DNA of 64,000 nt from Acholoe squamosa (Eukaryota > Annelida > Polychaeta > Phyllodocida > Polynoidae): positions 4,891,207 to 4,955,206 of the forward strand of contig OX439036.1 in the NCBI GenBank assembly GCA_949317995.1, read 5' to 3'. Both the position numbers and the translations under genes were made by a program. The notes under the pieces are model-generated. The model was not told the DNA's origin and did no database searches. It saw nothing but the letters and a program-made list of their open reading frames with translations. Positions 246 to 61,702 of the stretch are shown piece after piece (the stretch's first letter is position 1; each line of letters opens with the position of its first letter).

Positions 246-326
246 CTCTTATAATATTTGAATCTTTTAATGAAATGAAATCTTGCTTTTTACTCATATT
301 ATATCTTTATGTTTTAAACATTACAG

Positions 327-608: not shown

Positions 609-655
609 GTGAGTATTAGCGTAGAAGTTGTAGTAGTTTAACCGATGAAAGTGCA

Positions 656-1388: not shown

Positions 1389-1835
1389 CTTTGACAAATG
1401 AATGAACTGCTAATGAAGCCAATGAAACATAGCTAAATCCATGCTTTGAGTTATTGGCGAGGTGTATTCATGTATAGAAAAGTAAAGAAAATGTGCATTG
1501 TATTTGAGTGGTGGTTGTATAGGCAGGGCGTATCTTACATACACCAGGTATTGCGATAGTCTTCTCTGAGTTCTACCTTATCTATAAGATAAGCTTTATA
1601 TTAATCTATAAAGCTATTCCTGTACACATACTCTATGTCTTGTATACATAATATAATGATGTACCGCAAATCTATACCTACCCCAGCACCCCCTAGTGTG
1701 AAGTGAGTGAGCTCTTGTCCGTATAAAGGATTTAATTTGGCTGCATTACCTTCAAAGTCTGTTACAAAGGAACAACAGCTCAATAACCTGGCTATGTACA
1801 CCTGCCAGGGACAAATAGGGTAAAATTGTATGTAG
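1389..1835. other. Intron DNA with no recognised feature
   Basis: No exon-like frame with splice signals, no RNA gene and no clear repeat is seen between the two minisatellites. Confidence 0.6.
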
Positions 1836-2803: not shown

Positions 2804-2810
2804 CCTGGCC

Positions 2811-2860
2811 ATTTCTTAACAATGATAATAACACTGTTAAGAAATAACCCCTAGGGGTTA
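2811..2860. repeat. Two adjacent palindromes
   Basis: ATTTCTTAACA (2811-2821) pairs perfectly with TGTTAAGAAAT (2835-2845). It is followed at once by the perfect 16-bp palindrome TAACCCCTAGGGGTTA (2845-2860). The first arm, with the preceding GGCC, matches the end of the MITE family seen at 20732 and 45737 (GGAGGCCATTTCTTAACA), so this may be a remnant of that family. Confidence 0.65.
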
Positions 2861-4619: not shown

Positions 4620-5969
4620 TGTCATACTAGTAATTGGCATGATCAAGTTGTCATATGAGAAATATCATATGACTAGTGGTGTAAGGAGTAAATACATCAG
4701 GCTCATATAAAATAATGTTATTTCCAGTTGTCACTGGTTTATTCAGCTTTAGGCAACATGTAAGAAATATCAATCATACAGTAGTTGGTATGTAGGTAAT
4801 TAGTACATACAGTAAACATACAGTAATTTATAAAGTACAATGTTCAGTTCCACTCCACCTGTGAGGTATTAATAATACAGTGTCCAGCATACTTCTAGGT
4901 GGGTTCCCACACCTAGCTCCTGACCTGCTGCTTAGAGGAATAATGTAATAATGGATAACTTTACCCTCTGGTGGAAGTCTTGAAGAAGATAGCCTCTGGC
5001 CACTAATGGTAGGAAACCAATGCCTGTCTAGCATAGTTTCACCATAGTGCAGTGGTATAGCAGGTAGCAGGAGATGACTGGAGATGTTACCTCTAGAGCG
5101 GTTCTTGGTGATGTGTCCTCCTGGAGGTGCAGACAGGCTATTTGTAGCAAATCTTGGAAAAGCACCTCCAGACTGACTGGAGCCAGCAGCATCTGCCTAA
5201 CTGTACAATTGTTTGAGGGGACCCTTTCAAGTGTCACAGGGGGACAAAGGACCCCCATGGACGCCGCTATGGCCCCCATTGTCTCGGTCGGTTCTGCATC
5301 TTTAGACCCTCATATCTCGGCCGTTTATGCTTGTATAACCGCCATTTTGGGCATGCGCAGAGCTGAATGTGCCAAGATTATAATGCCTGCTGGATAGGCG
5401 CGTAACTCCCGCCGGTTTGTCTGTAGCTCACTCGGAGGTCGATTCAGTCTCCATGGCGTAACTTCCTTAATACTGGGAGTTCCGCCTTGATCTTGGGCTC
5501 ATTCTGACCGTCTAAGTATGGGCTTTCCATAGAATTTTTGATATTTGACCTAGGTCGCTCAGGAGCGACGCTAGAGCGACCGGAAGGTTATGGCGTCGTG
5601 CTTATGTAACCCATTGTTCAGTCCTTAGAGTGCTCAGACACTCATGACGGCGTCAGCGGTGCTCAGGCACCCGTGACGGCCGGTTGCATTCACTTACAAG
5701 TTATTAATTTGTGCATTGAACCATGAGGTCGCACACTGAGACCCTTATTCTTATTATATTGTGCAGTGAACCATTAGGTCGGACCTTTTGATGTCATAAA
5801 CTCAGTCTAACTGACTGTGGCTGGTGTGCAGTGGGGCATGAACGCTCTTATGTAAAGTTTGAGCGCTCTTATAGCTCTTAGAACCAACCTATGTATTAAT
5901 TTCATAGATATTTCTTTGATTAATACAAAATATGTTACAATTTATGGAATAATAAAATGGTATATCATA
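4620..5969 (-). repeat. 3' LTR of element 1
   Basis: This 1,350-bp repeat is 99.8% identical by eye to 19142-20491. In element orientation it runs from TATGATATACC to AGTATGACA. The polyadenylation signal AATAAA is on the minus strand at 4738-4743. Open frames inside the LTR (for example 5074-5397) are present in both LTRs simply because the LTRs are copies, and none has domain features. Confidence 0.95.
5553..5681. other. Cluster of stem-loops inside the LTR
   Basis: Three small hairpins follow one another: GGTCGCTC/GAGCGACC (5553-5560 with 5574-5581), GAGTG/CACTC (5628-5632 with 5639-5643) and GGTGC/GCACC (5658-5662 with 5667-5671). The last two belong to a roughly 30-bp direct repeat ending in CATGACGGCG or CGTGACGGCC. 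The same series is present in the other full LTRs. It could be a structured transcript leader or R region. The 5' LTR of element 2 is broken inside the loop of the GGTGC hairpin. Confidence 0.55.
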
Positions 5970-5987: not shown

Positions 5988-6329
5988 GAAAGAATGCGAA
6001 ACTCCGTCATTTCGCCGAGGGAATGTACAATTTATACAATTTTTACCTTATTTTTGGAGTTATATACTGTTTTGTAAGAGGATTTGAAGTAATGGGGAGT
6101 GCTTCAAATGCAATTTTTGTGGTAGAGCTTTGTCAGTATAAACAATTTTCTCCTGGGTATAAGTACATTTCCGAGTTTCTATATCTTACTATACCAGAGC
6201 TTATTTGCTTATGTAACATCAATTTTGGGTACAATTTTCCATTTTTATGTACAACATACAATTTGGGAAATAGTGTGCAATTTTGGCATTTAATATTCAA
6301 TTTAGCGTGCAAATTGAACATAAATGACA

Positions 6330-6715
6330 ATTTTAGTGTGCAAATTTACAATTTCGCGTGTAATTGCGTTCAATTGACAATTTCAGTATGCAAATATATA
6401 ATTTTTGCGTACATTTGGCAATTTAAGTGTGCAAATATATAATTTTCGCGTATATTTGGCAATTTTAGTGTGCAAATATATAATTTCGCGTACATTTGGC
6501 AATTTGAGTGTGCAAATATATAATTTTCGCGTATATTTGGCAATTTTAGTGTGCAAATATATAATTTCGCGTGCATTTGGCAATTTGAGTGTGCAAATAT
6601 ATAATTTTCGCGTATATTTGGCAATTTTAGTGTGCAAATATATAATTTCGCGTGCATTTGGCAATTTTAGTATGCCAATGTATAATTTTGCGTTCAATTG
6701 ATAGTTTCTGTATGT
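6330..6715 (-). repeat. AT-rich tandem array in the element 3' region (40/41-bp units)
   Basis: Alternating 40- and 41-bp units share GTGCAAATATATAATTT and CGCGTA..TTTGGCAATTT. About nine units are present. Element 2 has a shorter version at 59720-59960. Open frames in this array on both strands reflect the repeat and are not genes. Confidence 0.85.
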
Positions 6716-6859
6716 ACAAATATAATTTTGCGTACAGCTTGGATACACATAGAAATGTTGATTTTCTAAAAATCTGACTTCAGTGTATGAATTGGGTACA
6801 GGCATACAGTATAATGTGCAACATATAATTCAAATGTAAATTGGATACAACTTACAATC

Positions 6860-7125
6860 TAGTGTGCAAAAATACAATCTTTGTGTGCAAATTGGGTACA
6901 AGCGTACAATCTGGTGTGCAAACATACAATTTTAGTGTGCAAATTGGGTACAAGCGTACAATCTGGTGTGCAACATACAATTTTAGTGTGCAAATTGGGT
7001 ACAAGCGTACAATCTGGTGTGCAAACATACAATTTTAGTGTGCAAATTGGGTACAAGCGTACAATCTGGTTTGCAAACATACAATTTTGTGTGCAAATTG
7101 GGTACAAACGTACAATCTAGATTAC
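6860..7125 (-). repeat. Second tandem array in the element 3' region (about 50-bp units)
   Basis: Units contain GTGCAAATTGGGTACAAGCG, then TACAATCTGGTGTGCAA and CATACAATTTTA, about five copies. The counterpart in element 2 is at 59345-59640. It shares the GTGCAAAT and ACAATTT words with the neighbouring 40-bp array, so the whole 1.2-kb region may have grown from one short sequence. Confidence 0.85.
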
Positions 7126-7689
7126 ACTATTCAATTTATGGGATTTGAGACAAATTTTTCCGAGGGCCGGAAAAACAAAGTACTTCATGTACAATAGGCT
7201 TGTTTGTCTCTGAGTTACTCATTGATTTTGCTATATGGGTGTATTAATTGGCAATTTCGGCAGTGGGCCGCTGCTTAATTGACTATTCCCCTAGCCTTTT
7301 GAGTATGTGTCCCTGAAAGAGATTTATTTGGTGAGTATCTTAAGTAAACATGTCTTATGTCAACAATTTTCTCAACAAAAATTTTTTTTTTTTTTTTCAT
7401 TTTTCCAACAATTTTCTTGGATACCTAAAGTGTGTTACTTTAAGTAAACCTTGGCATAGTATACAAGTGCTAGTGGGTACAAAAACTGTCTTAGTTATCT
7501 ACCTGCATTCATGTATATTAATGTTAGATTTGTACAATTTTACAATTTGTAATTTGCAATTTCGCAATTTTGCGCGTATATGCGCATTAATCATTGATTT
7601 TTGTGAGAATACCATAGATTTTCATATTATACATCAACAAGTGGCTGTGTATATAATTTTTTTTTCTAATACTTTGATAATTTCATTGA

Positions 7690-7692
7690 CAG
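7690..7692 (+). promoter_or_regulatory. Candidate splice acceptor for an antisense transcript
   Basis: A polypyrimidine run with a CTAAT branch-point-like word precedes TTCATTGACAG on the same strand as ORF4, 228 bp before its ATG. The same signal is kept in element 2 (minus strand, near 58793-58830). This is an inference from sequence pattern only. Confidence 0.35.
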
Positions 7693-7919
7693 TGGAGGTG
7701 TGTCAGGAGTGAGATGTGAGTCTCCTCCCTGGTGTGCTCATGCAGTGGTGGCACTTGAGGTGTTAGGTGCCAGATTTTGGCATGTGTCTGTGGCAGTGCC
7801 TAGCTTGGTGTCAGTGGACAGTTCAGGGTGGGGGGGGGGGGTGTGTGTGTGTCCATTTAAGGAGTGTGTGGCTGGTATTGGAGCATCAGTTCCTCTCTGG
7901 AAGTCACTGCTGTAGTACC

Positions 7920-8399
7920 ATGGCCCACCTACAAGCTCTCTTCGCTCTGCCTGTCCCCCAGGTGATGGAGGTGGGGAGTCCAGCTAGGGCCCTGGTTGAG
8001 TCTAACCAGACCATCCATTATGGGTACATAGTGAGTAACTACAAAGAGATCATAGAGCATGGTGATGTGATGGTCTGTAATTACTCCTGCCATTATTTCC
8101 TGGGCTCAGCCTTGCGTCGGGGGGCCACTGTGGCCCTTCTGACTAGGGCCTTGGGCAGTATGGGTTTCTGGCCCATGGATTATAACCTAGGGCCGCGGGA
8201 GCGAGTGCTATGGGATTATTTGTTGGCGGCATCCCTCCTCGATCTTGCGGCATCCGGGAATCCATCCACGGCTGCCGAGTATGGACTGGGGATGCTGGAG
8301 GCCCGGCTCGCTGAGTGGGAGCAGGATCACGGCCATATGTATGGCTCGGACTCGGCCCCGGACTCTCCCATTGATGTTGAACCCGAGGATCTGTGGTAG
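7920..8399 (+). CDS. ORF4 of element 1: antisense accessory ORF, unknown function
   Basis: A 159-codon frame runs opposite to the element, tail-to-tail with env (150 bp between stops). The ATG at 7920 lies in ACCATGG, a strong eukaryotic initiation context, and the same start is kept in element 2 (58569). The protein has no signal peptide or clear membrane segment. It has a core, YFLGSALRRGATVALL, identical in both copies, paired tryptophans (FWPMD, RVLWDY, EWEQDH) and an acidic C-terminus ending IDVEPEDLW. The two copies have identical length with no gaps, 30 amino-acid differences (81% identity) and about 29 codons changed silently. The flanking DNA differs much less. This pattern supports coding function. 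I do not recognise the family. Antisense genes in this position are known in deltaretroviruses (HBZ), which is an analogy only. The frame continues open upstream of 7920, but a poly-G tract disrupts agreement between the copies there. Confidence 0.6.
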   Translation: MAHLQALFALPVPQVMEVGSPARALVESNQTIHYGYIVSNYKEIIEHGDVMVCNYSCHYFLGSALRRGATVALLTRALGSMGFWPMDYNLGPRERVLWDYLLAASLLDLAASGNPSTAAEYGLGMLEARLAEWEQDHGHMYGSDSAPDSPIDVEPEDLW

Positions 8400-8548
8400 G
8401 ATCCCGACTGACTGAAACCTAGGGTGTAAAAACCCGCCGTCCCAAAGGCCCTTTTCAGGGCCGGCAAATTGTCCGAAAAGTTCTGAATACTGTCTCTGAT
8501 GTGTTGTCTCCTGGTGGTGGACTGGGGGCAGCCTAGGCTGTGGGCAGT

Positions 8549-11173
8549 CTAGGCTGTTTCCACAGTCACCGGGGAGGGCTGGTGGTTTAGAAAATTAGCA
8601 ATAGTCTGCATGTTTGACCTTGCGGTCTCCTCCTGTTGTTCGTCAATAATTATATCTGTTGTATTTTCCAGTGCTGTCATGGTCACCGGGCTGGTGCCAC
8701 AATCATTCTGGAGAAGCATGGAGTAGTACAGTCCTTTGTTTTTAAGGGCTGGTATAGTGCTGAACCTAGTGCGCCAAGGTAGGTGTATCACCTGAGGGAG
8801 GTGATAAGCAAATTCTCCTCTCTGTGTTGTTATAACTGCTGGTCCATTCCAGGTAAATATAGCCTTAGGTAGTGGGAAGGTTTTAACCACTATATCCTTA
8901 TAGGTAGGGGCAGCTGCTGATTTAATCTCATCAAATTCATGTGGTATTGGCCTCAAGGGTAGCGCGAAGTTTGAGTCTCCACAATATATTTTAAAATATA
9001 TTGTGGGGTTTGTGCGCTTGGCCACATTTTTCTTGCCACAGTGTGTCTGTGCAAATTTCTTAAGGTACTTCATTATTCTGTAGGCTGAGTAGATGGTCAG
9101 GGTGAATAATATAGCAATTATCAGGGTGTGGGTTTCCTGAATTGTGAGGAAGGGGGTGTGGGTTTCCTCTGTAGGGGTTAGTTTGGTAGGATTCTTATCT
9201 GGGAGCAATTTGTGTAGGGGCAGCTCGGTGACTAGTCTGAATGCTTTGGCTGTAGGCAGGTAGGCTACAGTCCCTCCCAGTCTGTATAATTTGAGTAGTA
9301 TGTATACTATAAAAATGTGAGCTGATATCCCTAGGATGAGTGCTAAGCTTTGGAAGATTGGATGCTCTGTAACTCGACGTAGGTATGATTCCTCGTAGCG
9401 CGTTTCCATTTCCTTATTAAGGTTGGAGGCATCTTTTAATACTGTTTTAGCAAAGGGCTCTAAATTTAGTTGAGTAATATCATCCATGATTGGATTTTCC
9501 TGTAGTTTTTCTAAGGTTCTAGAAAGGTTTACTACTGGGAAATTTGGAAGATTCTCTCTTTCATCTGGTTTGGTTTCAGAAATTTTGTTAAGTGCTGCCA
9601 TGAATGGTAAATTAATTGTCTTGAGAATGTAATGAAATGATAAGGTTGAGTTACAGGGCAACCTTGTGTTTGGAAGAGAAAATTCTCCTACACTGATCGT
9701 GCACCCACAGGGTACACCTATGATTGAGTAGGACTGGGCCTTCCGAGTTTCAGACGTTTTACCATGGCAGTTGATAAAGTAATGGGGTTCATTAGTAGTG
9801 ACCAGATACTCATCTTCAGAAATGGAAATAGCATGGGTGGTAGGTGTTTGCAGTGGTGAAACTGTAAACTTGCAATGTTCCTTAATCTGTTGAGCCTGGT
9901 TAGTAAAAATGGCTACAGGGCATGTAGGCCTGTGTTTATAGATTCTACCATTTACATCTCTGCATACCTTTACTGTAGTACCTTCACATGCCTGCATATC
10001 TGCTGAGTCCAATTCGATAAATAATGATTCATCGTAAGATACTGCTAGAAACTCAGTTGTGGTTTGTAGTTTGGTGACTCCTCTGGTGGGGGTCTCCTGT
10101 GTGTCTATAGGCATGGGTGATGTAATCATTTGGTACAGTTTGAAGGTTGAGGTGGTAGATTGAATTATAATGTCCAGATGAATATATATATGGTGAGCTG
10201 AGTAAGTGTATGAGGTCAGCTTCTGTGAATAATAGAAATCTAAGTCATTAATTGCGACTTGTGCTCCAGGGTGTGTAATCCTAAGTTTGTTATTAATGTC
10301 AATTAGGTATCTAGCAAGGTCTGAGGGTGGTACTATATCAGGGGTTAGGATCCCTGATGATAGCATCCTCAGGGCTGCATTTGTCCTTTGCAGTGATTGA
10401 ACTGTATTCATTCTTGCTGCTATGATAATTAATGCATCATTTAATACTTGCATTTTCTCCCTTTGGGTTTTCTCGTGCCTTGAATATGAGTCAAGTGACC
10501 TGGACATGTTAGAGGCCCACAGGTTGACGGTGTCACCTATGGTGTTGATTGTGCTGTCCAGTACCTTCTTATCTTGGATGTATGCTTTAACAAACTTATC
10601 TTGTCTGTCTGTGATCTTTTCAATGAGATTAGCTGCTTCCTGGTCCTGTTTAGCAAATTTTCTTAGTATTTCATCTATGTTCTTGAGCTGTCCCATTACT
10701 TGGTTTACATCTTCTACTGTGGCTAGACCTAGCACACCGCGAAACAGGGGTGCTAGAAAACCCAGTATGGCCTCTCTTTTGGCCTTGTCCAATGTGTTTA
10801 TGGGGTTGGATAAGAACAATTTGATGGAGGCTAGTGTTTCATTTATCTCCTTGTCTGCAATTTCCAGCAAGGTGTCTAGCTCCTTAGCTTGTTGGATAAT
10901 TTGGCCAGAGGTATGATCTTGTAGAGTAGGAGTGGTCAAATGGAGTATTCTATCCCTTATGGATCCTTGGGTAACGGGTGCCCGAGGTATCTTGTAGGGA
11001 ATAGCTAACAACAGTGTTGTGGTTGTATGTCCATTGACCAATGGTTGAGGGCTAGGTTTGAATACTACTCCTATGTTTTGTCTCACCACAGGTGTATAAC
11101 CTGCAGTAAGTGGTTCAATAGTATATAATAACAGCATAGTTAGCAGTATGGGTGAAACTCTCAGTGTCCCCAT
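8549..11173 (-). CDS. env: Envelope protein of element 1, F-type fusion glycoprotein
   Basis: An 874-codon open frame starts at the ATG at 11173 in context ACCATGG. The frame is open a few codons further, but only from a TTG. A hydrophobic signal peptide (PILLTMLLLY) follows the start. Around residues 131-134 lies AKRE, a basic cleavage-like site, followed by a hydrophobic glycine-rich stretch ILGFLAPLFRGVLGL, then a helical region rich in N/Q/E heptads (VEDVNQVMGQLKNIDE). This order matches the F-like envelope proteins of insect errantiviruses and baculoviruses. A cysteine-rich ectodomain follows (about residues 395-510), then a membrane segment at about 606-628, a second hydrophobic segment at about 683-699, and a tail of about 170 residues, long for this family. 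The gene is uninterrupted. It probably uses a spliced mRNA, since it lies 0.8 kb after pol. Confidence 0.85.
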   Translation of the reverse strand: MGTLRVSPILLTMLLLYTIEPLTAGYTPVVRQNIGVVFKPSPQPLVNGHTTTTLLLAIPYKIPRAPVTQGSIRDRILHLTTPTLQDHTSGQIIQQAKELDTLLEIADKEINETLASIKLFLSNPINTLDKAKREAILGFLAPLFRGVLGLATVEDVNQVMGQLKNIDEILRKFAKQDQEAANLIEKITDRQDKFVKAYIQDKKVLDSTINTIGDTVNLWASNMSRSLDSYSRHEKTQREKMQVLNDALIIIAARMNTVQSLQRTNAALRMLSSGILTPDIVPPSDLARYLIDINNKLRITHPGAQVAINDLDFYYSQKLTSYTYSAHHIYIHLDIIIQSTTSTFKLYQMITSPMPIDTQETPTRGVTKLQTTTEFLAVSYDESLFIELDSADMQACEGTTVKVCRDVNGRIYKHRPTCPVAIFTNQAQQIKEHCKFTVSPLQTPTTHAISISEDEYLVTTNEPHYFINCHGKTSETRKAQSYSIIGVPCGCTISVGEFSLPNTRLPCNSTLSFHYILKTINLPFMAALNKISETKPDERENLPNFPVVNLSRTLEKLQENPIMDDITQLNLEPFAKTVLKDASNLNKEMETRYEESYLRRVTEHPIFQSLALILGISAHIFIVYILLKLYRLGGTVAYLPTAKAFRLVTELPLHKLLPDKNPTKLTPTEETHTPFLTIQETHTLIIAILFTLTIYSAYRIMKYLKKFAQTHCGKKNVAKRTNPTIYFKIYCGDSNFALPLRPIPHEFDEIKSAAAPTYKDIVVKTFPLPKAIFTWNGPAVITTQRGEFAYHLPQVIHLPWRTRFSTIPALKNKGLYYSMLLQNDCGTSPVTMTALENTTDIIIDEQQEETARSNMQTIANFLNHQPSPVTVETA

Positions 11174-11998: not shown

Positions 11999-14900
11999 CT
12001 AATTTCTTGAAACTGCACCACACCTAGATGTCTTCCTTAGTATGTGGTGTGCAGGCCTAGGCTTGATAGGGCCTATGCCTGTGGTTTCTCTTGTAAGGGT
12101 GATATCATTTTTGTTCCTTACAATTTTGCTGTAGTATTTGGCCTCATGTGGAATAAGCCTGTGTGCAAATTCATTATTTCTGACAGCCATAACCTTTTTC
12201 AGTCTGTCTATGTGCACTGGTCTGGCCACCAATAGATTGGTGTCCAGGTTTTTGAGTTTGGCACTTGTCAAACTAGGTCTATCTACTACAACATATGGTC
12301 CCATAAAAAGGGGTTGAAGTTTCTTACACTCTGTGTTGGTCAGGATTCTTGGTATGTTTAGGTACACCATGTCGGTGACCTTGATTTCCTGTGGTGTAAG
12401 TTTCTTATCATATCTATCCTTCCTTTCCTTTTGTAGCTTGGCGACCCTTTCTATAGCTTTCCTCCTAGAGGTATCTTGATTTGTTATCATGTTAGCTACA
12501 TGGTCTGCTACGGTGGATATGTCTTCCTGTATTCCCAGCCCTAAGTCCATTGGGGTGGCTGGGTTTCTTCCATGGAGTAGGAAGAAAGGGGTGAATCCTG
12601 TGGTTTGGGATTCAGTGTTGTTTAATGCAAAAGTTATGGGTTCAATAAATGAATCCCAATTGTTTTGGTGCTTTGAGCAGAATGCTCTGAGTGCTGTGCC
12701 TATGCTAGCATTGAATCTCTCTACAAGCCCATTTGATTGTGGCCTGTATGGTGAGGAGAATTTATGTTTGATCTTGAGGTGTTTAGTTAACTTTGTGAAC
12801 TTTGCACCTGTATAACATGTCCCATTGTCTGTTTGAAGAGTGGCTGGTGTTCCATGATGACAGATTATATTCTTGTAGAACTCTGCTGCTGTTGTCTCAG
12901 CTTTTAAGTCAGTAGTAGCCCAAGCTGTTGCATATCTGGTAGCATAATCTATGCAGACTTGTATATGTTTGTTTCCCCTGGCAGTTGTGGGAAGTGGTCC
13001 CACCGCGTCTAGGTTTAGGAACTTCATTGGTGAAGTCATGTACTCTCTCACTGTCATTGGTGTTTTGTGTGAGTGTACTTGCCTTTTTGCTGTGAGGCAT
13101 GTGTGGCAGGTGGAAACATATTTTGTTGTGTCTGCTAGCATAGACTTCCAATATACCCTAGGTCGGAGTGCTGACAGCATCCTACTTGAACCAAGATGGC
13201 CGCCGGTAGGTGAGTCATGGAAATACTGTAGTGTACTTGTTACCCATTGCTGTGGTATAACAATTTGAAGTGGTACAGTATTGGTTTTTCTCCAATTTAT
13301 GGGGCATATATGGACTAATGTACCATTTACCAAGGTGTATGTCTGGCCTTGGTTGATGATTCTATTTCCTTGTGCTTTTGGTGCAGGCAAGGTCCCATCC
13401 TCAAGATACTGTATGAGGGGCAATAGGTCCTTGTCTTTCCTTTGTTCCAAGCCAAGGTTTGTACCTGAGATGGATGTGTCGGGAATCTGATCCAGTAGTT
13501 GATTTATATCTAGCACATGTTGTTTTATTCTGTCTCTTTCTTTTTCTTTTTCATCGACTATTGGCCTATCTTGTGCTTTTTGTTGGGGTGTGTCACTCTT
13601 GTTTTGGTGTGTAGGCTCCTTTGGAGGGCCTATTCTCGCCTTGATGGGAGTGGCAACCTTTTTCTTTAAAGGCACAATTTGCTTTTTGTCATTCTTCTTT
13701 GTCTCAGAGTTCTTTGACTTAGCAGATGCAGTGTCTTTTGTGACATTTTTCCTGGCAGGTGGGGTTTTGGTAGGTTTGTTTCCTGTGACCTTTTTCTCAT
13801 TTAGAATAGTTTGTGATTGTGTGGGGGGTTTTGGTGTGCCCTCCTGAATCATTTCTCTAGTCTTTGAGCGTGTGGTCATAGGGCACAAATGGTTTGGTGT
13901 TTCCTCTCCCTGCATAGGTTCAAAGAATCTGACTGATTTAGAAGTTGCTTGAGTAATAGCATATATTGTGTCTTCTGGATCTTCATCATCTGAGTCAGGT
14001 GGGGTGAAGGGTGGCTCCTTAGGAGTTGCCTTCACTATCTGATTGAGTGATGAGAATTCAATAGGCTCGAAGTCATTATCTGGAAAGAGTTGTGAGTATT
14101 CTCTCTCACAGTGGCAAAACACATAGTGTGTAGATTGCTTCAAGATACCCCTAATGGGTGTCTCTGGCCTTTCAATGGTGTTGGGTGGATCATCCCTTTT
14201 GAATGGTACTTTCTTTGTTACTTTTGCAAACTTGGTTCTACTGGCTGCTCTAACTCTCCTTGGTGGGGGTGGAGGGTTAGTCATGGGTCCAGAGTCTGGG
14301 TATTCTCTTCTAGACATAGCATCTGGTGGTGTGTTATCATCACCTTTCACGTGTTGGATGGTGAATGAAAATTGTTGTATGTCTAGAGCCCATCTGGCCC
14401 ATCTATGTGTGAGTCCTGTATTGGTTAATAGTGGGATTAGGGCTGCATGGTCTGTGTATAGTTGGAAGTGTCTGGTCTCTAGATAGTGTCTGAAGTGTAA
14501 TACTCCATACACTACTCCCAGTAGTTCTCTCTCTGTGGTATTGTAATTTCTCTCATGTTTTGAGAGGGTTCTGCCTGCAAAGGCTACTGGTCTGAGCACT
14601 CCTTCATTATCTCTCTGTGAGAGTACAGCTCCTAAACTCACATTGGAAGCATCAGTTGCCAAACTGAACTCTTTCTCATAGTTTGGATATCTGAGAAGAG
14701 CATTGGTACAGAGGGCATGCTTTAATGTTTTGAAAGCATTATCTGCCTCTTCTGTCCAGACAAATGCTTTGAGATGTGTCTGTAGATCATACAATGGTCT
14801 AGCAATTTGGGCATAACCTTTGATAAACTTTTTGAAGTATTGGCATAGGCCTGTGAAGGATCGGACATTTTTGACTGATTTTGGTGTTGGGAAGGTTTTG

Positions 14901-16840
14901 ATTGACTCCACCTTTGTGGGAGATGGTTGTAGTCCCATGGGTGTGACTCTCATTCCCAAGAAGTCTATTCTGTCTATGAAGTATTCACATTTTGATTTCT
15001 TCAGTTTGAGTTTACCAACTCTTAGGCTGTTGAACACATCTTCCAGGTCATGGAAGTGTTGTTCGATTGATGGTGATAATACCAATATGTCATCTAGGTA
15101 TGGTAGGGCACATTTGTACTTGAGTTTATTCAGAATTAATGTGACTAGATGGCAGAATCCCGCCGGTGCCGTCGCTAAACCCATCGGCATCCTTTCATAG
15201 ACATATTTTTTGTCATTTGCTATGAATGCGGTTTTATGCTGATCCTCCTGTCTTATAGGAATTTGAAAAAATCCCTGTTGGGCATCTAGCTTACTGAATA
15301 CTCTTGGTCTGAGTGACCCTATCATGTCTAGAGTGTCATCGGCCCGGGGTGTAGATAAGGCTTGATTTATCGTGTTCTGGTTCAAATAACGAAAATCTGT
15401 GACGAGCCGATGGCCTCCCGATGATTTTTGTACTAAAAAGGATCTGGAGGCCCAGGGGCCCTCGGCACATTCTCTCAGAATGCCCTGTTGTACTAGCCTT
15501 TCACACTCTTCCCCTATAGCGGCCTGTTTTTCTGGTGTTTGTCTATATGGTAGGAAATGACATGGTACTGCCTCAGGTTTTACATGTATTGAGTGTGTAT
15601 ACAGGTGTGTGGCACCAATGTCTCCATCTTTTCCTACAAATACATCATCATACTTGGTCAGCAGTGATTTTAATCTATCATGCTGATCTTTGGATGTGAG
15701 CACAGATTTTGGTGGAACATTCTCTTCCAATTCTGGCTCGAGGTCATGTGCCTCACTATGTATAGCAGCTATTTCAGAGAGTCTGATTGAGTTGGGTTCA
15801 GGGTCAGCATATGTGGACTCACAGTCTGAGTCTGTGTCACTGAATTGAGTTACATCCTCAGGCCGTATGGCTGAGATGGATTGATCAGTGTGTGGGGTAG
15901 TGTCTGACACCTGTTGAGGTTTTTCTAAATCAGATTCCTTGACTTCCTGAAATAGAGCTATGATGGCACCCTTTTTGATTTTATGTGGGCGCCTGCTGGT
16001 GTTGAGTAACACTAGGGGATGTTTGTTATTTTCCCTGGGGGTTACTGCTGCCCTTTGAACTAGATATGGGGCATTGTTATTTCTTTGGAGGTTATCTACT
16101 ACTCCAGTCTTCCCTTGCAGTGATTGAGTAGATGTGACCTTACCCAATACTGCAAGTTCAGAGAATGGAGGGATGGTAAAATCCCTCACTGCCCTAATGG
16201 GTTTGAGAATTTGTTCAGGATCAACATTAAATTCAATTTGAGATTTTGTAGTGCTTAAGAAATCTGTGCCGAGTACAATGGGCTGTGTGAGGTTGGGTAT
16301 TACAGCAAATTGGTATTGGAATCTGACACCTTGGATTCTAAAGTTCAGCATAGCTGAATGTCTAACATGACACACCGATCCATCTGCCAAGTGGATGTTG
16401 ATTTTAGATTTCCTCAGTTGGATATGGAATCTCTTTTGGAGATCCATGAGGAATGATTGTCTGACACAGGTGATAGTAGCACCTGTATCAACCAAACATT
16501 GTACATCTGAAACATCATATAGATTTGCATTGATACAGCCATTTTGAAGAAGTACAATAGAAAGCTTGGTACTCTCACCTGTATCCTTTGATGATGAATC
16601 TGGTGGGGTGATGTGTATCACTGATGGACGTCTCTGTCTGTTAGATGGTAGATTGGCACTAGCAATTGTCTCTGGTTGGATCTTTGTTAATCCTGATTGA
16701 TTGTTTGTATTTGGGGTGTCACAGTGCACTGGCCCATCGGCACTGTGACATCCTAGTTTTCCTGGTTCTGTGGGGTGGTTGAGATGCTTGCCACCAGGAG
16801 TTTGGAGATTTGATCCATCACATGAGGTGGTATTTGGGGG
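11999..16840 (-). CDS. pol: Pol polyprotein of element 1: protease, reverse transcriptase, RNase H, integrase
   Basis: The frame opens after a TAA at 16843-16841, lies -1 relative to gag and overlaps gag by about 88 bp, so it is probably reached by frameshifting. Numbering from codon 16729: aspartic protease with DTGA at about 81-84 and the flap-like region VLGTDFL (154-160); RT from about 380 to 650 with RLVTDFRYLNQ, KLDAQQGFFQIP and the YLDD active site at 545-548; RNase H with TDAS at 693-696 and DHAAL; integrase zinc finger with His at 1172 and 1179 and Cys at 1209 and 1212; DDE catalytic residues at Asp1242, Asp1302 (TDNG) and Glu1338. Between RNase H and integrase lies a linker of about 280 residues, rich in Pro, Lys, Ser and Glu, with no domain I recognise. 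No chromodomain is evident. The gene is intact, about 1,576 codons from the first conserved block, long for Ty3/gypsy pol. Confidence 0.92.
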   Translation of the reverse strand, partial: PPNTTSCDGSNLQTPGGKHLNHPTEPGKLGCHSADGPVHCDTPNTNNQSGLTKIQPETIASANLPSNRQRRPSVIHITPPDSSSKDTGESTKLSIVLLQNGCINANLYDVSDVQCLVDTGATITCVRQSFLMDLQKRFHIQLRKSKINIHLADGSVCHVRHSAMLNFRIQGVRFQYQFAVIPNLTQPIVLGTDFLSTTKSQIEFNVDPEQILKPIRAVRDFTIPPFSELAVLGKVTSTQSLQGKTGVVDNLQRNNNAPYLVQRAAVTPRENNKHPLVLLNTSRRPHKIKKGAIIALFQEVKESDLEKPQQVSDTTPHTDQSISAIRPEDVTQFSDTDSDCESTYADPEPNSIRLSEIAAIHSEAHDLEPELEENVPPKSVLTSKDQHDRLKSLLTKYDDVFVGKDGDIGATHLYTHSIHVKPEAVPCHFLPYRQTPEKQAAIGEECERLVQQGILRECAEGPWASRSFLVQKSSGGHRLVTDFRYLNQNTINQALSTPRADDTLDMIGSLRPRVFSKLDAQQGFFQIPIRQEDQHKTAFIANDKKYVYERMPMGLATAPAGFCHLVTLILNKLKYKCALPYLDDILVLSPSIEQHFHDLEDVFNSLRVGKLKLKKSKCEYFIDRIDFLGMRVTPMGLQPSPTKVESIKTFPTPKSVKNVRSFTGLCQYFKKFIKGYAQIARPLYDLQTHLKAFVWTEEADNAFKTLKHALCTNALLRYPNYEKEFSLATDASNVSLGAVLSQRDNEGVLRPVAFAGRTLSKHERNYNTTERELLGVVYGVLHFRHYLETRHFQLYTDHAALIPLLTNTGLTHRWARWALDIQQFSFTIQHVKGDDNTPPDAMSRREYPDSGPMTNPPPPPRRVRAASRTKFAKVTKKVPFKRDDPPNTIERPETPIRGILKQSTHYVFCHCEREYSQLFPDNDFEPIEFSSLNQIVKATPKEPPFTPPDSDDEDPEDTIYAITQATSKSVRFFEPMQGEETPNHLCPMTTRSKTREMIQEGTPKPPTQSQTILNEKKVTGNKPTKTPPARKNVTKDTASAKSKNSETKKNDKKQIVPLKKKVATPIKARIGPPKEPTHQNKSDTPQQKAQDRPIVDEKEKERDRIKQHVLDINQLLDQIPDTSISGTNLGLEQRKDKDLLPLIQYLEDGTLPAPKAQGNRIINQGQTYTLVNGTLVHICPINWRKTNTVPLQIVIPQQWVTSTLQYFHDSPTGGHLGSSRMLSALRPRVYWKSMLADTTKYVSTCHTCLTAKRQVHSHKTPMTVREYMTSPMKFLNLDAVGPLPTTARGNKHIQVCIDYATRYATAWATTDLKAETTAAEFYKNIICHHGTPATLQTDNGTCYTGAKFTKLTKHLKIKHKFSSPYRPQSNGLVERFNASIGTALRAFCSKHQNNWDSFIEPITFALNNTESQTTGFTPFFLLHGRNPATPMDLGLGIQEDISTVADHVANMITNQDTSRRKAIERVAKLQKERKDRYDKKLTPQEIKVTDMVYLNIPRILTNTECKKLQPLFMGPYVVVDRPSLTSAKLKNLDTNLLVARPVHIDRLKKVMAVRNNEFAHRLIPHEAKYYSKIVRNKNDITLTRETTGIGPIKPRPAHHILRKTSRCGAVSRN

Positions 16841-19141: not shown

Positions 19142-20491
19142 TGTCATACTAGTAATTGGCATGATCAAGTTGTCATATGAGAAATATCATATGACTAGTG
19201 GTGTAAGGAGTAAATACATCAGGCTCATATAAAATAATGTTATTTCCAGTTGTCACTGGTTTATTCAGCTTTAGGCAACATGTAAGAAATATCAATCATA
19301 CAGTAGTTGGTATGTAGGTAATTAGTACATACAGTAAACATACAGTAATTTATAAAGTACAATGTTCAGTTCCACTCCACCTGTGAGGTATTAATAATAC
19401 AGTGTCCAGCATACTTCTAGGTGGGTTCCCACACCTAGCTCCTGACCTGCTGCTTAGAGGAATAATGTAATAATGGATAACTTTACCCTCTGGTGGAAGT
19501 CTTGAAGAAGATAGCCTCTGGCCACTAATGGTAGGAAACCAATGCCTGTCTAGCATAGTTTCACCATAGTGCAGTGGTATAGCAGGTAGCAGGAGATGAC
19601 TGGAGATGTTACCTCTAGAGCGGTTCTTGGTGATGTGTCCTCCTGGAGGTGCAGACAGGCTATTTGTAGCAAATCTTGGAAAAGCACCTCCAGACTGACT
19701 GGAGCCAGCAGCATCTGCCTAACTGTACAATTGTTTGAGGGGACCCTTTCAAGTGTCACAGGGGGACAAAGCACCCCCATGGACGCCGCTATGGCCCCCA
19801 TTGTCTCGGTCGGTTCTGCATCTTTAGACCCTCATATCTCGGCCGTTTATGCTTGTATAACCGCCATTTTGGGCATGCGCAGAGCTGAATGTGCCAAGAT
19901 TATAATGCCCGCTGGATAGGCGCGTAACTCCCGCCGGTTTGTCTGTAGCTCACTCGGAGGTCGATTCAGTCTCCATGGCGTAACTTCCTTAATACTGGGA
20001 GTTCCGCCTTGATCTTGGGCTCATTCTGACCGTCTAATTATGGGCTTTCCATAGAATTTTTGATATTTGACCTAGGTCGCTCAGGAGCGACGCTAGAGCG
20101 ACCGGAAGGTTATGGCGTCGTGCTTATGTAACCCATTGTTCAGTCCTTAGAGTGCTCAGACACTCATGACGGCGTCAGCGGTGCTCAGGCACCCGTGACG
20201 GCCGGTTGCATTCACTTACAAGTTATTAATTTGTGCATTGAACCATGAGGTCGCACACTGAGACCCTTATTCTTATTATATTGTGCAGTGAACCATTAGG
20301 TCGGACCTTTTGATGTCATAAACTCAGTCTAACTGACTGTGGCTGGTGTGCAGTGGGGCATGAACGCTCTTATGTAAAGTTTGAGCGCTCTTATAGCTCT
20401 TAGAACCAACCTATGTATTAATTTCATAGATATTTCTTTGATTAATACAAAATATGTTACAATTTATGGAATAATAAAATGGTATATCATA
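19142..20491 (-). repeat. 5' LTR of element 1
   Basis: This 1,350-bp LTR is nearly identical to 4620-5969. It carries the same hairpin cluster and the AATAAA signal. In element orientation it begins TATGATATACC, so the usual TG terminus is preceded by two extra bases, and it ends in CA. The 4-bp duplication GATG follows at 20492-20495. Confidence 0.95.
20390..20395 (-). promoter_or_regulatory. Candidate TATA box in the 5' LTR of element 1
   Basis: TATAAG in the context AGCTATAAGAGC lies about 100 bp into the LTR in element orientation. Element 2 has two such words (60448-60453 and 60469-60474). No transcription start can be seen from sequence. Confidence 0.3.
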
Positions 20492-47039: not shown

Positions 47040-47057
47040 AAGTGGTGGAGAACATCC
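47040..47057 (+). other. Putative primer-binding site of element 2
   Basis: AAGTGGTGGAGAACATCC follows the LTR end exactly as in element 1; the same reservations about the tRNA apply. Confidence 0.4.
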
Positions 47058-47185
47058 TACTAAGATCCTAAATTACCCAATGCTCTCATGAAAATTAAGC
47101 TGGCAACATTACTGAAAACAATCATACACACAGTAAACCCCACTCCACCCACCCAGTGACCTTGACACCATGCCCACAAAGGTCA

Positions 47186-54501: not shown

Positions 54502-55331
54502 AAACAGATTGAGATACCAAAAAAAAACATAAGATTTTCAAAATGTATTACAAATTCTCTTCATCCACACATAAGACATGTGTGACTGATAATGAATTAC
54601 TTATATGTATATAAAGCCAATCAAATTTGTAAATATATCAGTAGGTTATTGCCTCTGAAATGGTCAAAGACTGGGACCCTCCAAGTAAAGCAGACATGAA
54701 GTCTAAGAAGAGTAAGGGTAACACAATGGAGTGTCTAAAGCCTAATCCCCACATGAAAGAGCGCGCTATGCCAACACAGCAGTCTATAGAGATCAATTGA
54801 CCTTATAAGCTACACTCAGACAACTGTCTAGACGGTCATGAATGGCTGTCCTGGATGACAGGAGGAGCTAATTACCAGTACACAGATTACACAATAGAAC
54901 CCCACAGTTGCAGACACTGGAGATTAGGTACATGACTCCAGAGAAACAATACCAGGCCCACAATGGATGTGGGTAGGGTAGGCTACATAAGAAGCACTGT
55001 GGACCATAGCCCACCATCAGTCTTCATCCAGCTGCAGTCTGGAACACAAGTCTACAGGACCCCACTTGGGAATTAGCCAGCCCACTTCTCCATTAGGAGA
55101 GACTGCACTAGGATAAAGAACACACCTACTTCACCTTCAACCTGACCTTACCATTTATTGGTCAATCTCTATAGACTCACCGGACATATTGCCAAGACAG
55201 CTCAATCTTGCAAAGGTACAGTTTGAACCACTTCATTTAAAGTGTTACACCATACACTTAGACTTTACCAGCACCAATTCACTACAAATTTGACAAGACT
55301 TTGAACAGCAAACTTGCTTTACACAAGCACC
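54502..55331 (+). other. Untranslated spacer between pol and env of element 2
   Basis: Counterpart of 11174-11998 in element 1, with high similarity and no convincing frame. Confidence 0.5.
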
Positions 55332-57956
55332 ATGGGGAGACTGAGAGTTTCACCCATACTGCTAACTATGCTGTTATTATATACTATAGAACCACTTACT
55401 GCAGGTTATACACCTGTGGTGAGACAAAACATAGGAGTAGTATTCAAACCTAGCCCCCAACCATTGGTCAATGGACATACAACCACAACACTGTTGTTAG
55501 CTATCCCCTACAAGATACCTCGGGCACCCGTTACTCAAGGATCCATAAGGGATAGAATACTCCAGTTGACCACTCCTACTCTACAAGATCATACCTCTGG
55601 TCAAATTATCCAACAAGCCAAAGAGCTTGACACCTTGCTGGAAATTGCAGACAAGGAGATAAATGAAACATTAGCCTCCATCAAATTGTTCCTATCCAAC
55701 CCCATAAACACATTGGACAAGGCCAAAAGAGAGGCCATACTGGGTTTTCTAGCACCCCTGTTTCGCGGTGTGCTAGGTCTAGCCACAGTAGAAGATGTAA
55801 ACCAAGTAATGGGACAGCTCAAGAACATAGATGAAATACTAAGGAAATTTGCTAAACAAGATCAGGAAGCAGCTAGTCTCATTGAAAAGATCACAGACAG
55901 ACAAGATGAGTTTGTTAAAGCATACATCCAAGATAAGAAGGTACTAGACAGCACAATCAACACCATAGGTGACACCGTCAACCTGTGGGCCTCTAACATG
56001 TCCAGGTCACTTGACTCATATTCAAGGCACGAGAAAACTCAAAGGGAAAAGATGCAAGTATTAAATGATGCATTGATTATCATAGCAGCAAGAATGAATA
56101 CAGTTCAATCACTGCAAAGGACAAATGCAGCCCTGAGGATGCTATCATCAGGAATCCTAACCCCTGATATAGTACCACCCTCAGACCTTGCTAGATACTT
56201 AATTGACATTAATAACAAACTTAGGATTACACACCCTGGAGCACAAGTCGCAATTAATGACTTAGATTTCTATTATTCACAGAAGCTGACCTCATACACT
56301 TACTCAGCTCACCATATATATATTCATCTGGACATTATAATTCAATCTACCACCTCTACCTTCAAACTGTACCAAATGATTACATCACCCATGCCTATAG
56401 ACACACAGGAGACCCCCACCAGAGGAGTCACCAAATTGCAAACCACAACTGAGTTTCTAGCAGTATCTTACGACGAATCATTATTCATCGAATTGGACTC
56501 AGCAGATATGCAGGCATGTGAAGGTACTACAGTAAAGGTGTGCAGAGATGTAAATGGTAGAATTTATAAACACAGGCCTACATGCCCTGTAGCCATTTTT
56601 ACTAACCAGGCTCAACAGATTAAGGAACATTGCAAGTTTACAGTTTCACCACTGCAAGCACCTACCACCCATGCTATTTCCATTTCTGAAGACGATTATC
56701 TGGTCACTACTAATGAACCCCATTACTTTATCAACTGCCATGGTAAAACGTCTGAAACTCGAAAAGCCCAGTCCTACTCAATCATAGGTGCACCCTGTGG
56801 GGGCACAATCAGTGTAGGAGAATTTTCTTTTCCAAACACAAGGTTGCCCTGTAACTCAACCTTATCATTTCATTACATTCTCAAGACAATTAATTTACCT
56901 TTCATGGAAGCACTTAACCAAATTTCTGAAACCAAACCAGATGAAAGAGAGAATCTTCCAAATTTCCCAGTAGTAAACCTTTCTAAAACCTTAGAAAAAC
57001 TACAGGAAAATCCAATCATGGATGATATTACTCAACTAAATTTAGAGCCCTTTGCCGAAACATTATTAAAAGATGCCTCCAACCTTGATAAGGCAATGGA
57101 AACGCGCTACGTGGAATCATACCTACGTCGAGTTACAGAGCATCCAATCTTCCAAAGCTTAGGACTCATCCTAGGGATATCAGCTCACATTTTTATAGTA
57201 TACATACTACTCAAACTGTACAGACTAGGAGGGACTGTAGCCTACCTGCCTACAGCCAAAGCCTTCAGACTAGTCACCGAGCTGCCCCTACACAAATTGC
57301 TCCCAGACAAGAATCCTACCAAATTAACCCCTACAGAGGAAACTCACACCCCTTTCCTCACAATTCAGGAAACCCACACCCTGATAATTGCTATATTATT
57401 CACCCTGACCATCTACTCAGCCTACAGAATAATGAAGTACCTTAAGAAATTTGCACAGACACACTGTGGCAAGAAAAATGTGGCCAAGCGCACAAATCCC
57501 ACAATATATTTTAAAATATATCGTGGAGACTCAAACTTCGCGCTACCCCTGAGGCCAATACCACATGAATTTGATGAGATTAAATCAGCAGCTGCCCCAA
57601 CCTACAAGGATATAGTGGTTAAAACCTTCCCACTACCTAAGGCTATATTTACCTGGAATTGACCAGCAGTTATAACAACACAGAGAGGAGAATTTGCTTA
57701 TCACCTCCCTCAGGTGATACACCTACCTTGGCGCACTAGGTTCAGTACCATACCAGCCCTTAAAAACAAAGGACTGTACTACTCCATGCTTCTCCAGAAT
57801 GATTGTGGCACCAGCCCGGTGACCATGACAGCACTGGAAAATACAACAGATATAATTATTGACGAACAACAGGAGGAGACCGCAAGGTCAAACATGCAGA
57901 CTATTGCTAATTTTCTAAACCACCAGCCCTCCCCGGTGACTGTGGAAACAGCCTAG
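55332..57956 (+). pseudogene. env: env of element 2 with one internal stop
   Basis: The frame begins at the ATG at 55332 (ACCATGG) and follows element 1 with about 19 differences over 780 codons. The signal peptide, basic AKRE site, hydrophobic glycine-rich stretch, cysteine-rich ectodomain and both hydrophobic segments are kept. A TGA at 57660-57662 cuts the protein about 98 codons before the normal end, inside the long C-terminal tail, so the ectodomain and membrane anchors could still be made. The frame remains open after the stop to 57956. Confidence 0.85.
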
Positions 57957-58089
57957 ACTGCCCCCAGTCCACCACCAGGAGACAACATATCAGAGACAGT
58001 ATTCAGAACTTTTCAGACAATTTGCCGGCCCTGAAAAGGGCCTTTGGGATGGCGGGTTTTTACACCCTAGGTTTCAGTCAGTCGGGATC

Positions 58090-58569
58090 CTACCACAGAT
58101 CCTCGGGTTCAACATCGATGGGAGAGTGGGAGTCCGAGTCCGACCCATACATATGGCCGTGGTCCTGTTCCCACTCAACAAGCCGGGCCTCCATCAATCC
58201 CAGTCCATACTCGGCTGCCATAGATGGGTCCCCGGATGCCGCGAGATCGATGAAGGACACTGCCAACAAATAATCCCACAAGACTCGCTCCCGCGGTCCG
58301 AAGTTAGAGTCCATGGGCCAGAACCCTAGATTACTCAAGGCCCTAGCCAAAAGGGCCACAGTGGCCCCCCGACGCAAGGCTGAGCCCAAGAAATATTGGC
58401 AGGAATACATGTCCACCAACACATCACCATGCTCACTGATCTCTCTGAAATTCCTCATTATGTAGCCATAGTGTATGGTCTGGTTGGCCTCCACCAGGGC
58501 CCTAGCCGGACTCCCCACCACCATCACCTGGGAGACAGGCAAAGCAAAGATAGCTTGAAGGTGAGCCAT
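58090..58569 (-). CDS. ORF4 of element 2: antisense accessory ORF, unknown function
   Basis: Same position, length (159 codons) and ACCATGG start as ORF4 of element 1, convergent with env. It is 81% identical in protein, with changes concentrated in residues 38-58, 75-90, 104-117 and 125-148. The core YFLGSALRRGATVALL, the GPRERVLWDYLLA block and the last 11 residues, SPIDVEPEDLW, are invariant. It is the only intact gene in an otherwise broken element. No domain is recognised. The frame is also open further upstream, to 58740, without a better start. Confidence 0.6.
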   Translation of the reverse strand: MAHLQAIFALPVSQVMVVGSPARALVEANQTIHYGYIMRNFREISEHGDVLVDMYSCQYFLGSALRRGATVALLARALSNLGFWPMDSNFGPRERVLWDYLLAVSFIDLAASGDPSMAAEYGLGLMEARLVEWEQDHGHMYGSDSDSHSPIDVEPEDLW

Positions 58570-60333: not shown

Positions 60334-60351
60334 AGGGGAGAGGGAGTATTC
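60334..60351 (+). other. Polypurine tract of element 2
   Basis: AGGGGAGAGGGAGTATTC lies directly before the 3' LTR. Confidence 0.85.
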
Positions 60352-61702
60352 TATGATATACCATTTTATTATCCCATAAATTCTAACATATTATTGTATT
60401 AATCAAAGAATATCTAAGAAATTAATACATAGGTTGGTTCTAAGAGCTATAAGAGCACTCAAACTTTGTATAAGAGCGTTCATGCCCCACTGCACACCAG
60501 CCAGAGTCAGTTAGACAGAGTTTGTGACATCAAAGGGTCCAACCTAATGGTTCACTGCACAATATAATAAAAATGAGGGTCTCAGTGTGCGACCTCATGG
60601 TTCAGTGCACAAACTAATAAGTTGTAAGTGAATGCAACCGGCCGTCACGGGTGCCTGAGCACCGCTGACGCCGTCATGAGTGTCTGAGCACTCTAATAAC
60701 TGAACAATGGGTTACATAAGCACGACGCCATAACCGTCCGGTCGCTCTAGCGTCGCTCCTGAGCAAGCTAGGTCAAATATCAAAGCATTTATGGAAAGCC
60801 CATAATTAGACGGTCTAAATGAGCCCAAGATCAAGGCGGAACTCCCATTATTAAGGAAGTTACGTCATAGAGACTGAATCGACCTCTGAGTGCACTACAG
60901 ATGAACCGGCGCGAGTTACGCGCCTATCCAGCGGGCATTATGAACTCGGCATATTCAACTCCGCACATGCGCAAAATGGCAGTTATAGAGGCGTAAACGA
61001 CCGAGATATGAGGGTCTGAAGTCACAGAACCGACCAAGACAAAGGGGGACACAGCGGCGCCCATGGGGGTCCTTTGTGGACCCAGTGACACATGAAAGCC
61101 TCCCCTCAAACAATTGCAGAGTTAGGCAGATGCTACTGGCCCCAGTCAGTCTGGAGGTGCTTTTCCAAGATTTGCTACAAATAGCCTGTCTGCACCTCCA
61201 AGAGGACAGAACACCAAGAACCGCTCTAGAGGTAACATCTCCAGTCATCTCCTGCTACCTGCTATACCACTGCACTATGGTGAAACTATGCTAGACAGGC
61301 ATTGGTTTCTATCATTAGTGGCCAGAGGGTATCTTCCTCAAGACTTCCACCAGAGGGTAAAGTTATTCATTATTACATTATTCCTCTAAGCAGCAGGTCA
61401 GGAGCTAGGTGTGGGAACCCACCTAGAACTATGCTGGACATTGTATTATTATTACCTCACAGGTGGAGTGGAACAGAACATTATACTTTATAAATTACTG
61501 TATTTTTACTGTATGTACAAATTACCTACATACTAACTACTGTATGATTGATATTTCTTATATGTTGCCTAAGGCTGAATAAACCAGTGACAACTGGAAA
61601 TAACACTATTTTATGAGAGCTTAATGTATTTACACTATATACCACTAGTCTTATGATATTTCTCATATGACAACTTGATCATGCACAATTACTAGTATGA
61701 CA
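60352..61702 (+). repeat. 3' LTR of element 2
   Basis: A complete 1,351-bp LTR running from TATGATATACC to AGTATGACA, with two TATAAG words (60448-60453, 60469-60474), the hairpin cluster near 60650-60790 and AATAAA at 61578-61583. It differs from the LTRs of element 1 by several percent. Confidence 0.95.

What the first reader, a model, noticed from the sequence alone, without database searches (positions are those of the whole stretch)
7920..8399. Antisense ORF4: a gap-free, hypervariable gene island in a gypsy-type retroelement
Seen directly: both copies carry a 159-codon ORF opposite to env with the same ACCATGG start and same stop. Hand codon alignment gives about 71 differences in 477 bases (15%), no indels and no stops. 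About 29 codons change silently and 30 change the residue, whereas a neutral frame would be expected to show roughly three replacement changes per silent one. The DNA on either side (7700-7919 and 8400-8548 against the element 2 counterparts) differs by only about 2-3%, and env by about 2-3% of residues. Divergence is therefore concentrated in the ORF while its reading frame is preserved. Inference: a real antisense accessory protein, either under rapid change or swapped in from a diverged lineage by recombination. I recognise no homologous family.
Basis: partly seen in the sequence, partly recalled or inferred. Interest (0 to 1): 0.9.

Follow-up and report, generated by a model that had tools for sequence, protein, structure and literature searches.

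The report
Antisense accessory gene in a retroelement
A virus-like jumping element found in over a thousand places of a large, probably animal, genome carries a small protein gene written backwards behind its envelope-like gene; selection has preserved the protein although this gene has drifted apart far more than the DNA around it, and no relative of the protein was found.

Summary
At 7920-8399 (+) lies a 159-codon ORF, 149 bp beyond the stop of the env-position gene, on the opposite strand of a Ty3/gypsy-type element. The second copy differs at 71 of 480 bases with no indel or stop. A real antisense protein gene is strongly supported: dN/dS 0.21 for the pair, 0.23 over 59 distinct copies, 30 replacements against 46 expected (0 of 5000 random placements as low), and 25 of 27 sampled C1 copies open. 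The excess divergence is real too: four-fold sites differ at 25% in ORF4, 5.6% in env, 3.6% in pol. But 'rapid change or one swap' is too simple: dN/dS is low, variants form a graded series, and the excess recurs between several lineages. Its cause (old alleles, repeated exchange or a locally raised rate) is open. No homologue was found in the libraries searched, which may hold few animal proteins; the structure model failed. Function is inferred, as an antisense regulator or accessory protein, by analogy with plant Retand/Grande elements and HTLV HBZ. Part of the family may lack ORF4.

The parts
7920..8399 (+). ORF4 of element 1: 159-codon antisense ORF (stop included)
   Evidence: purifying selection
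58090..58569 (-). ORF4 of element 2: 159-codon homologue, 81% residue identity
8549..11191 (-).
   Evidence: Pfam rows below cut-off, best PDB row E 0.8
11999..16729 (-). pol of element 1: protease, reverse transcriptase, RNase H, integrase in gypsy order
   Evidence: Pfam
4620..5969 (-). 3' LTR of element 1 (1350 bp); 4-bp target duplication GATG outside both LTRs
19142..20491 (-). 5' LTR of element 1; 3 differences in 1350 to the 3' LTR, so a young insertion
6292..7118 (.). AT-rich tandem-repeat arrays (units of about 40/81 and 52/103 bp) between ORF4 and the 3' LTR
7690..7879 (+). conserved block upstream of ORF4, candidate antisense promoter or 5' leader (inferred, not shown)
   Evidence: 1.6-3.2% between element 1 and the 30 beta copies
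8400..8548 (.). conserved spacer between the ORF4 stop and the env stop
55314..57662 (+). env-position ORF of element 2, open for 782 codons (shorter than in element 1)
60350..61702 (+). 3' LTR of element 2 (left end approximate); its 5' LTR from 45817 is interrupted by a repeat array

Best explanation
ORF4 is a genuine accessory gene of a young, very successful Ty3/gypsy-type element that also has an env-position gene. It reads against the element's own genes and makes a small acidic soluble protein (about 17.5 kDa, pI about 4.6, no membrane segment by hydropathy). Shown: the ORF, its kept frame and start, and purifying selection on the protein across many lineages. Shown: its synonymous divergence is 5-7 times that of env and pol, with edges close to the ends of the gene. 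Inferred: antisense transcription from a promoter in the conserved block 7690-7919 or in the 3' LTR, as in plant Grande and HTLV-1. Inferred: the protein acts in trans on the element's own expression, or on a host factor met during replication. Inferred: the excess divergence means that ORF4 lineages are older than the genes around them, because different ORF4 alleles persisted while the rest of the element was repeatedly replaced by recombination or by spread of one backbone.
For: Coding: dN 0.096, dS 0.459 for the two window copies; omega 0.233 over 59 distinct open sequences; random-placement test 0 of 5000. Prevalence: 1195 places carry the ORF4 3' 23-mer with at most one mismatch, reversed-pattern control 0; first-look candidates 1671 and 1672. 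Of the 27 places listed on C1 (all exact matches), 25 have an open frame; the exceptions are L102 (14-bp deletion) and C1:9796982 (TAG). Excess age: dS ORF4 0.459, env 0.087 (first 782 codons), pol 0.064; four-fold sites 16/65, 19/341, 21/587. Population scale: 30 alpha and 30 beta copies give net divergence 0.09-0.20 in windows over 7860-8399 against 0.00-0.03 in 8400-9110. Not CpG decay: 7 of 71 differences are CpG transitions and 30 are transversions. Acidic soluble protein. An antisense promoter beside such a gene is reported for maize Grande, and a 3' LTR antisense promoter for a mussel element (passages read).
Against: No transcript data. No AATAAA or ATTAAA on the ORF4 strand between 8400 and 11300 in element 1; element 2 has one AATAAA, 2.9 kb downstream. 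Old alleles plus ordinary recombination should give graded edges, yet divergence falls within about 50-75 bases. Recombination was not demonstrated: in 59 of 60 copies at most two flank marker sites are of the other class, but there are only 21 such sites, they were defined on the same 60 copies, and those were picked by ORF4 similarity; of ten other copies L091 and L097 show mixed flank markers. Selection is not strong in every pair: pairwise dN/dS among ten copies runs from 0.09 to 0.50, and ORF4 is less constrained than env and pol. Of the first 100 listed env places, 46 lack an exact ORF4 3' 23-mer nearby, so part of the family may live without ORF4. No fold or motif supports a molecular function (mean pLDDT 43.8).
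Confidence: 0.6

Rival explanations
1. ORF4 is a real gene, but this stretch of about 480 bp has a locally raised substitution rate during replication (for example a reverse-transcription hot spot), so no old alleles or exchange are needed.
For: The excess over pooled flanks recurs between separate lineages: ratio 2.8-8.9 in the 45 pairs with at least 16 ORF4 differences. Even young pairs show 0.0112 in ORF4 against 0.0025 in the env end (21 pairs). Edges are sharp.
Against: Against the neighbouring noncoding stretches the young pairs show little excess (0.0112 against 0.0077 in 7416-7689 and 0.0102 in 7690-7879), while old pairs show a threefold excess over 7416-7689. Changes are mixed, 41 transitions and 30 transversions, without an editing signature. 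I know of no process that makes synonymous sites of one short gene change 5-7 times faster.
Confidence: 0.25
2. ORF4 was replaced in one lineage by recombination with a diverged element (a single cassette swap); the rest is ordinary drift.
For: Sharp edges, and another noncoding patch of about 14% divergence in the LTR, as a mosaic would give. L091 and L097 have mixed flank markers.
Against: Graded intermediates: alpha' at about 93%, L091 and L097; excess also between alpha and alpha', beta and L091, beta and L097.
Confidence: 0.12
3. ORF4 is not translated; it is a chance open frame opposite a functional RNA.
For: No transcript, homologue or nearby polyadenylation signal.
Against: dN/dS 0.2, no indels between the window copies, third-position excess, 25 of 27 frames open, 0 of 5000 random placements.
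Confidence: 0.03

Closest known systems
Plant Retand/Grande/RIRE2 Ty3/gypsy elements with antisense aORF between pol and 3' LTR (PMC11963269, PMC7264820; passages read)
   Same: Antisense accessory ORF between the last sense gene and the 3' LTR; tandem-repeat arrays in the same interval in about half of the Retand elements; role unknown.
   Different: Plants; sense ORFs of that interval in Retand show no env features; 72 of 104 Retand antisense ORFs encode known domains, mainly TRP28, proposed to bind DNA. Here an env-position gene is present and the protein is acidic with no Pfam match.
HTLV-1 HBZ and HIV-1 ASP antisense proteins (PMC5237517; passages read)
   Same: Protein encoded on the antisense strand in the 3' part of an env-bearing retroelement.
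   Different: HBZ is a bZIP protein and ASP lies opposite env; ORF4 has no bZIP match and does not overlap env.
Mytilus chilensis Steamer-like element MchSLE-1, antisense 67-aa ORF with 3' LTR antisense promoter (PMC10974842; passages read)
   Same: Antisense ORF with a good Kozak context in an LTR element; antisense RNA shown there.
   Different: 67 aa in a 4.76-kb element with a single sense ORF; ORF4 is 159 aa in a 15.9-kb element, with selection shown by comparison of copies.
Extra ORFs of bdelloid rotifer LTR elements (PMC5408684; 12 of 29 passages seen)
   Same: Accessory ORFs beyond gag-pol-env in animal LTR elements.
   Different: Those are ORF3 types with domain matches (DEDDy, GDSL); the passages seen describe no antisense gene.

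Membership tests
Ty3/gypsy (Metaviridae) LTR element | pol order protease-RT-RNase H-integrase | tested here: met
   Pfam order along 11999-16729
Ty3/gypsy (Metaviridae) LTR element | LTRs and short target duplication | tested here: met
   1350-bp LTRs; GATG on both sides of element 1, GTAC on both sides of element 2
Ty3/gypsy (Metaviridae) LTR element | RT phylogeny placing it in a named clade | not tested
   no RT tree was made
env-bearing errantivirus-like element | env homologous to a known fusion glycoprotein | tested here: inconclusive
   three Pfam rows, all below cut-off and none an envelope family; one PDB row at E 0.8
Plant Retand-type antisense aORF | antisense ORF between the last sense gene and the 3' LTR, kept in most copies | tested here: inconclusive
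   position met; frame open in 25 of 27 copies with the 3' flank, but 46 of 100 env places lack an exact match to that flank
Plant Retand-type antisense aORF | TRP28 (PF04195) or other Pfam domain | tested here: not met
   0 families in 9 of 9 ORF4 proteins
HBZ-type antisense protein | bZIP domain | tested here: not met
   no Pfam match in 9 of 9; acidic protein
HBZ-type antisense protein | antisense transcript from the 3' LTR | not testable with these tools
   no RNA data

The most novel reading that the evidence does not exclude
ORF4 is an identity or interference factor of the element: a trans-acting antisense protein whose alleles are kept diverse by negative frequency-dependent selection (for example each allele restrains or excludes elements of its own type, or escapes a matching host factor), while gag-pol-env backbones sweep through the family. 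It would be an allele-diverse accessory locus in a retroelement.
Probability: 0.12. Interest if true: 0.85.

Novelty: new variant of a known kind. Interest (0 to 1): 0.5.

Why it matters
Antisense accessory genes are established for a few vertebrate retroviruses and for some plant gypsy elements, mostly without known function. A conserved antisense gene without known relatives, in an (apparently animal) gypsy element with over a thousand copies, gives a case where selection on such a gene can be measured within one genome. The unusual age of its alleles compared with pol and env makes two questions testable: whether retroelement accessory genes are kept polymorphic, and whether antisense proteins help an element to amplify. 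In the listings of five searches of open-access papers I saw no title or abstract describing such a gene in an env-bearing animal gypsy element; papers outside that library were not searched.

Tried and rejected
Homology: phmmer against 5.8 billion proteins with ORF4 and a profile of nine ORF4 variants: no row at E <= 1. That collection did not return the copies of this genome either, so it may hold few animal proteins. Pfam: none. PHROGs: one row for element 2 at E 0.13, taken as chance. PDB sequences: two weak rows (E 0.072 and 0.61) that vanish with the profile. IMG/VR gave one 22-residue match at 48% (L009), judged chance, not read further. AlphaFold2 with the two window copies failed (mean pLDDT 43.8), so no fold search was run. 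A sister family with other proline codons in the GFWPMD motif: 11 places against 2 in the reversed control, four with one identical sequence; not read, so older relatives are not excluded. CpG decay or editing: rejected. Coding function of the LTR patch: rejected, changes evenly spread over codon positions with stops in all six frames. A single recent swap: disfavoured. High env divergence in some windows comes from L064 and L065, whose env part does not align, and is not used. The stop counts (0 of 150 and 6 of 150 with a stop) are biased to the best matches and not used as frequencies. One search stopped on a script error and was redone. Troyka elements (PMC12440569, abstract and passages) have no antisense gene in what I saw and were left aside.

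Full report
The window is G000:C2:4891207-4955206 of an unnamed 1.48-Gb genome in 63 contigs. It holds two copies of one LTR element in opposite orientations. Element 1 (minus strand) has LTRs at 4620-5969 and 19142-20491 with 3 differences in 1350 bases and a 4-bp duplication GATG on both sides. Its pol has the protease-RT-RNase H-integrase order of Ty3/gypsy. An 880-codon ORF follows in the env position; Pfam and PDB do not identify it, so 'env' is used by position only. Element 2 (plus strand) runs from 45817 to 61702 with GTAC on both sides. That the host is an animal is my impression, not tested.

It lies 149 bp beyond the env stop, on the opposite strand, so the two genes converge and do not overlap. 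The two copies differ at 71 of 480 bases, with 29 silent and 30 replacement codons, no indel and no stop. NG86 gives dN 0.096 and dS 0.459. The five other frames contain stops in both copies and would have 40-56 residue changes. Placing the same substitutions at random gives 46.3 replacements on average (sd 3.4); 0 of 5000 trials reach 30, and 88% create a stop. This is a protein-coding gene under purifying selection. Its dN/dS of 0.21 is nevertheless higher than that of env (0.12) and pol (0.16) between the same two elements.

Copies in the genome. The ORF4 protein has 1671 and 1672 first-look candidates, of which the tool scored the best 150. A 23-mer at the ORF4 stop, at most one mismatch, occurs 1195 times; the reversed control 0 times. 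To avoid choosing by similarity of the ORF I took all 27 such places listed on contig C1. The 100 listed places are all exact matches, so places with one mismatch seem to be listed later and are missing, as are copies whose 3' flank is lost. Of the 27, 7 were known were fetched. 25 have an open frame; L102 has a 14-bp deletion and C1:9796982 a TAG. By type, 15 are close to element 1 (alpha), 7 belong to a group about 93% identical to it (alpha', L102 included), 2 are intermediate (L091, L097) and 3 are close to element 2 (beta). A codon model on 59 distinct open sequences (82 collected, L102 dropped, duplicates merged) gives omega 0.233; pairwise values among ten copies run from 0.09 to 0.50.

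Where the divergence lies. With 30 alpha and 30 beta copies, net divergence is 0.09-0.20 in 60-base windows over 7860-8399, 0.00-0.03 in 8400-9110 and 0.00-0.02 in 7680-7859; elsewhere it reaches 0.098 in one noncoding window (7260) and 0.06 in a few others. Per region, beta copies differ from element 1 by 14-16% in ORF4, 1-2% in the last part of env (8549-9110), 2.5-5% further into env, 4-6% in the noncoding stretch 7140-7689 and 5-10% in the tandem repeats, leaving out stretches that do not align in L064, L065 and L085. Between the two window copies dS is 0.459 in ORF4, 0.087 in env and 0.064 in pol; four-fold sites differ at 16/65, 19/341 and 21/587. Of 87 sites that separate alpha from beta in 7200-9099, 66 lie in the ORF4 stretch.

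What made it. CpG decay or editing is excluded: 7 of 71 changes are CpG transitions and 30 are transversions. A single recent swap is unlikely: intermediates exist, and among 12 copies with flanks (66 pairs) the excess recurs. Mean divergence in ORF4, 7416-7689, 7690-7879, 8400-8540 and the env end is 0.0112, 0.0077, 0.0102, 0.0061, 0.0025 in the 21 youngest pairs; 0.063, 0.022, 0.022, 0.008, 0.005 in 18 middle pairs; and 0.130, 0.043, 0.024, 0.018, 0.010 in 27 old pairs. So in young pairs ORF4 barely exceeds the noncoding neighbours but still exceeds the env end about fourfold, which leaves a local rate effect possible. Recombination was not demonstrated: 59 of 60 copies carry at most two flank markers of the other class, but only 21 flank sites exist and they were defined on these same copies; of ten other copies, L091 and L097 have mixed flank markers. 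A patch of the LTR (about 5203-5460) is also about 14% diverged and shows no coding signal, which fits a mosaic history. I favour old ORF4 alleles that outlived repeated replacement of the rest of the element; a locally raised rate stays open.

What it does. The nine variants examined are small (17.5-17.7 kDa), acidic (pI 4.55-4.96) with an acidic tail, and without a membrane segment by hydropathy. No credible homologue was found, and the structure model is not usable. The nearest analogues are antisense accessory ORFs between pol and the 3' LTR of plant Retand, Grande and RIRE2 elements; about half of the Retand elements have tandem repeats in the same interval, and a promoter upstream of Grande gene23 drives antisense transcription (passages of PMC11963269 and PMC7264820). 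HTLV HBZ represses sense transcription (passages of PMC5237517). A mussel Steamer-like element has a 3' LTR antisense promoter and a 67-aa antisense ORF (passages of PMC10974842). By this analogy a regulator of the element's own expression is the most likely role; this is inference. Against it: no AATAAA or ATTAAA on the ORF4 strand of element 1 between 8400 and 11300, one AATAAA 2.9 kb downstream in element 2, and no RNA evidence.

An open point. A 23-mer in env occurs 1892 times with at most one mismatch, against 1195 for the ORF4 3' 23-mer. Of the first 100 listed env places (exact matches), 54 have an exact ORF4 3' 23-mer within 8 kb in convergent orientation, 51 of them at about 2.3 kb; 46 do not, 3 of these having an ORF4 protein hit nearby. 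Conversely 54 of 64 listed ORF4 places have the env 23-mer. Some of the 46 may carry the ORF4 23-mer with a mismatch, which the list did not show; the rest either lack ORF4 or have a changed ORF4 end.

Noticed in passing
window 5203-5460 (LTR of element 1) and its counterpart in the 60350-61702 LTR of element 2: A second divergent island, about 14% in a noncoding part of the LTR, more than in most other windows of the LTR.
   Followed up: partly
window 6292-7118: AT-rich tandem arrays between ORF4 and the 3' LTR, as reported for about half of plant Retand elements.
   Followed up: partly
window 46100-47830: The 5' LTR of element 2 is interrupted by a 20-bp-period repeat array that is itself duplicated (about 965 bp apart).
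   Followed up: no
window 275-619: Cysteine-containing ORF that recalls a SUEL-type rhamnose-binding lectin (recalled, not tested); would suggest an animal host, perhaps a mollusc.
   Followed up: no
window 1600-2850: 27-bp tandem array open in several frames on both strands; the ORFs there are probably repeat artefacts.
   Followed up: no
G000:C14:43275368-43283649: Four ORF4 copies in a row about 2.3-3.2 kb apart with equal scores, which looks like a local amplification of part of the element.
   Followed up: no
genome-wide, env 23-mer: 46 of the first 100 listed env places lack an exact ORF4 3' signature; possible ORF4-less subfamily.
   Followed up: partly
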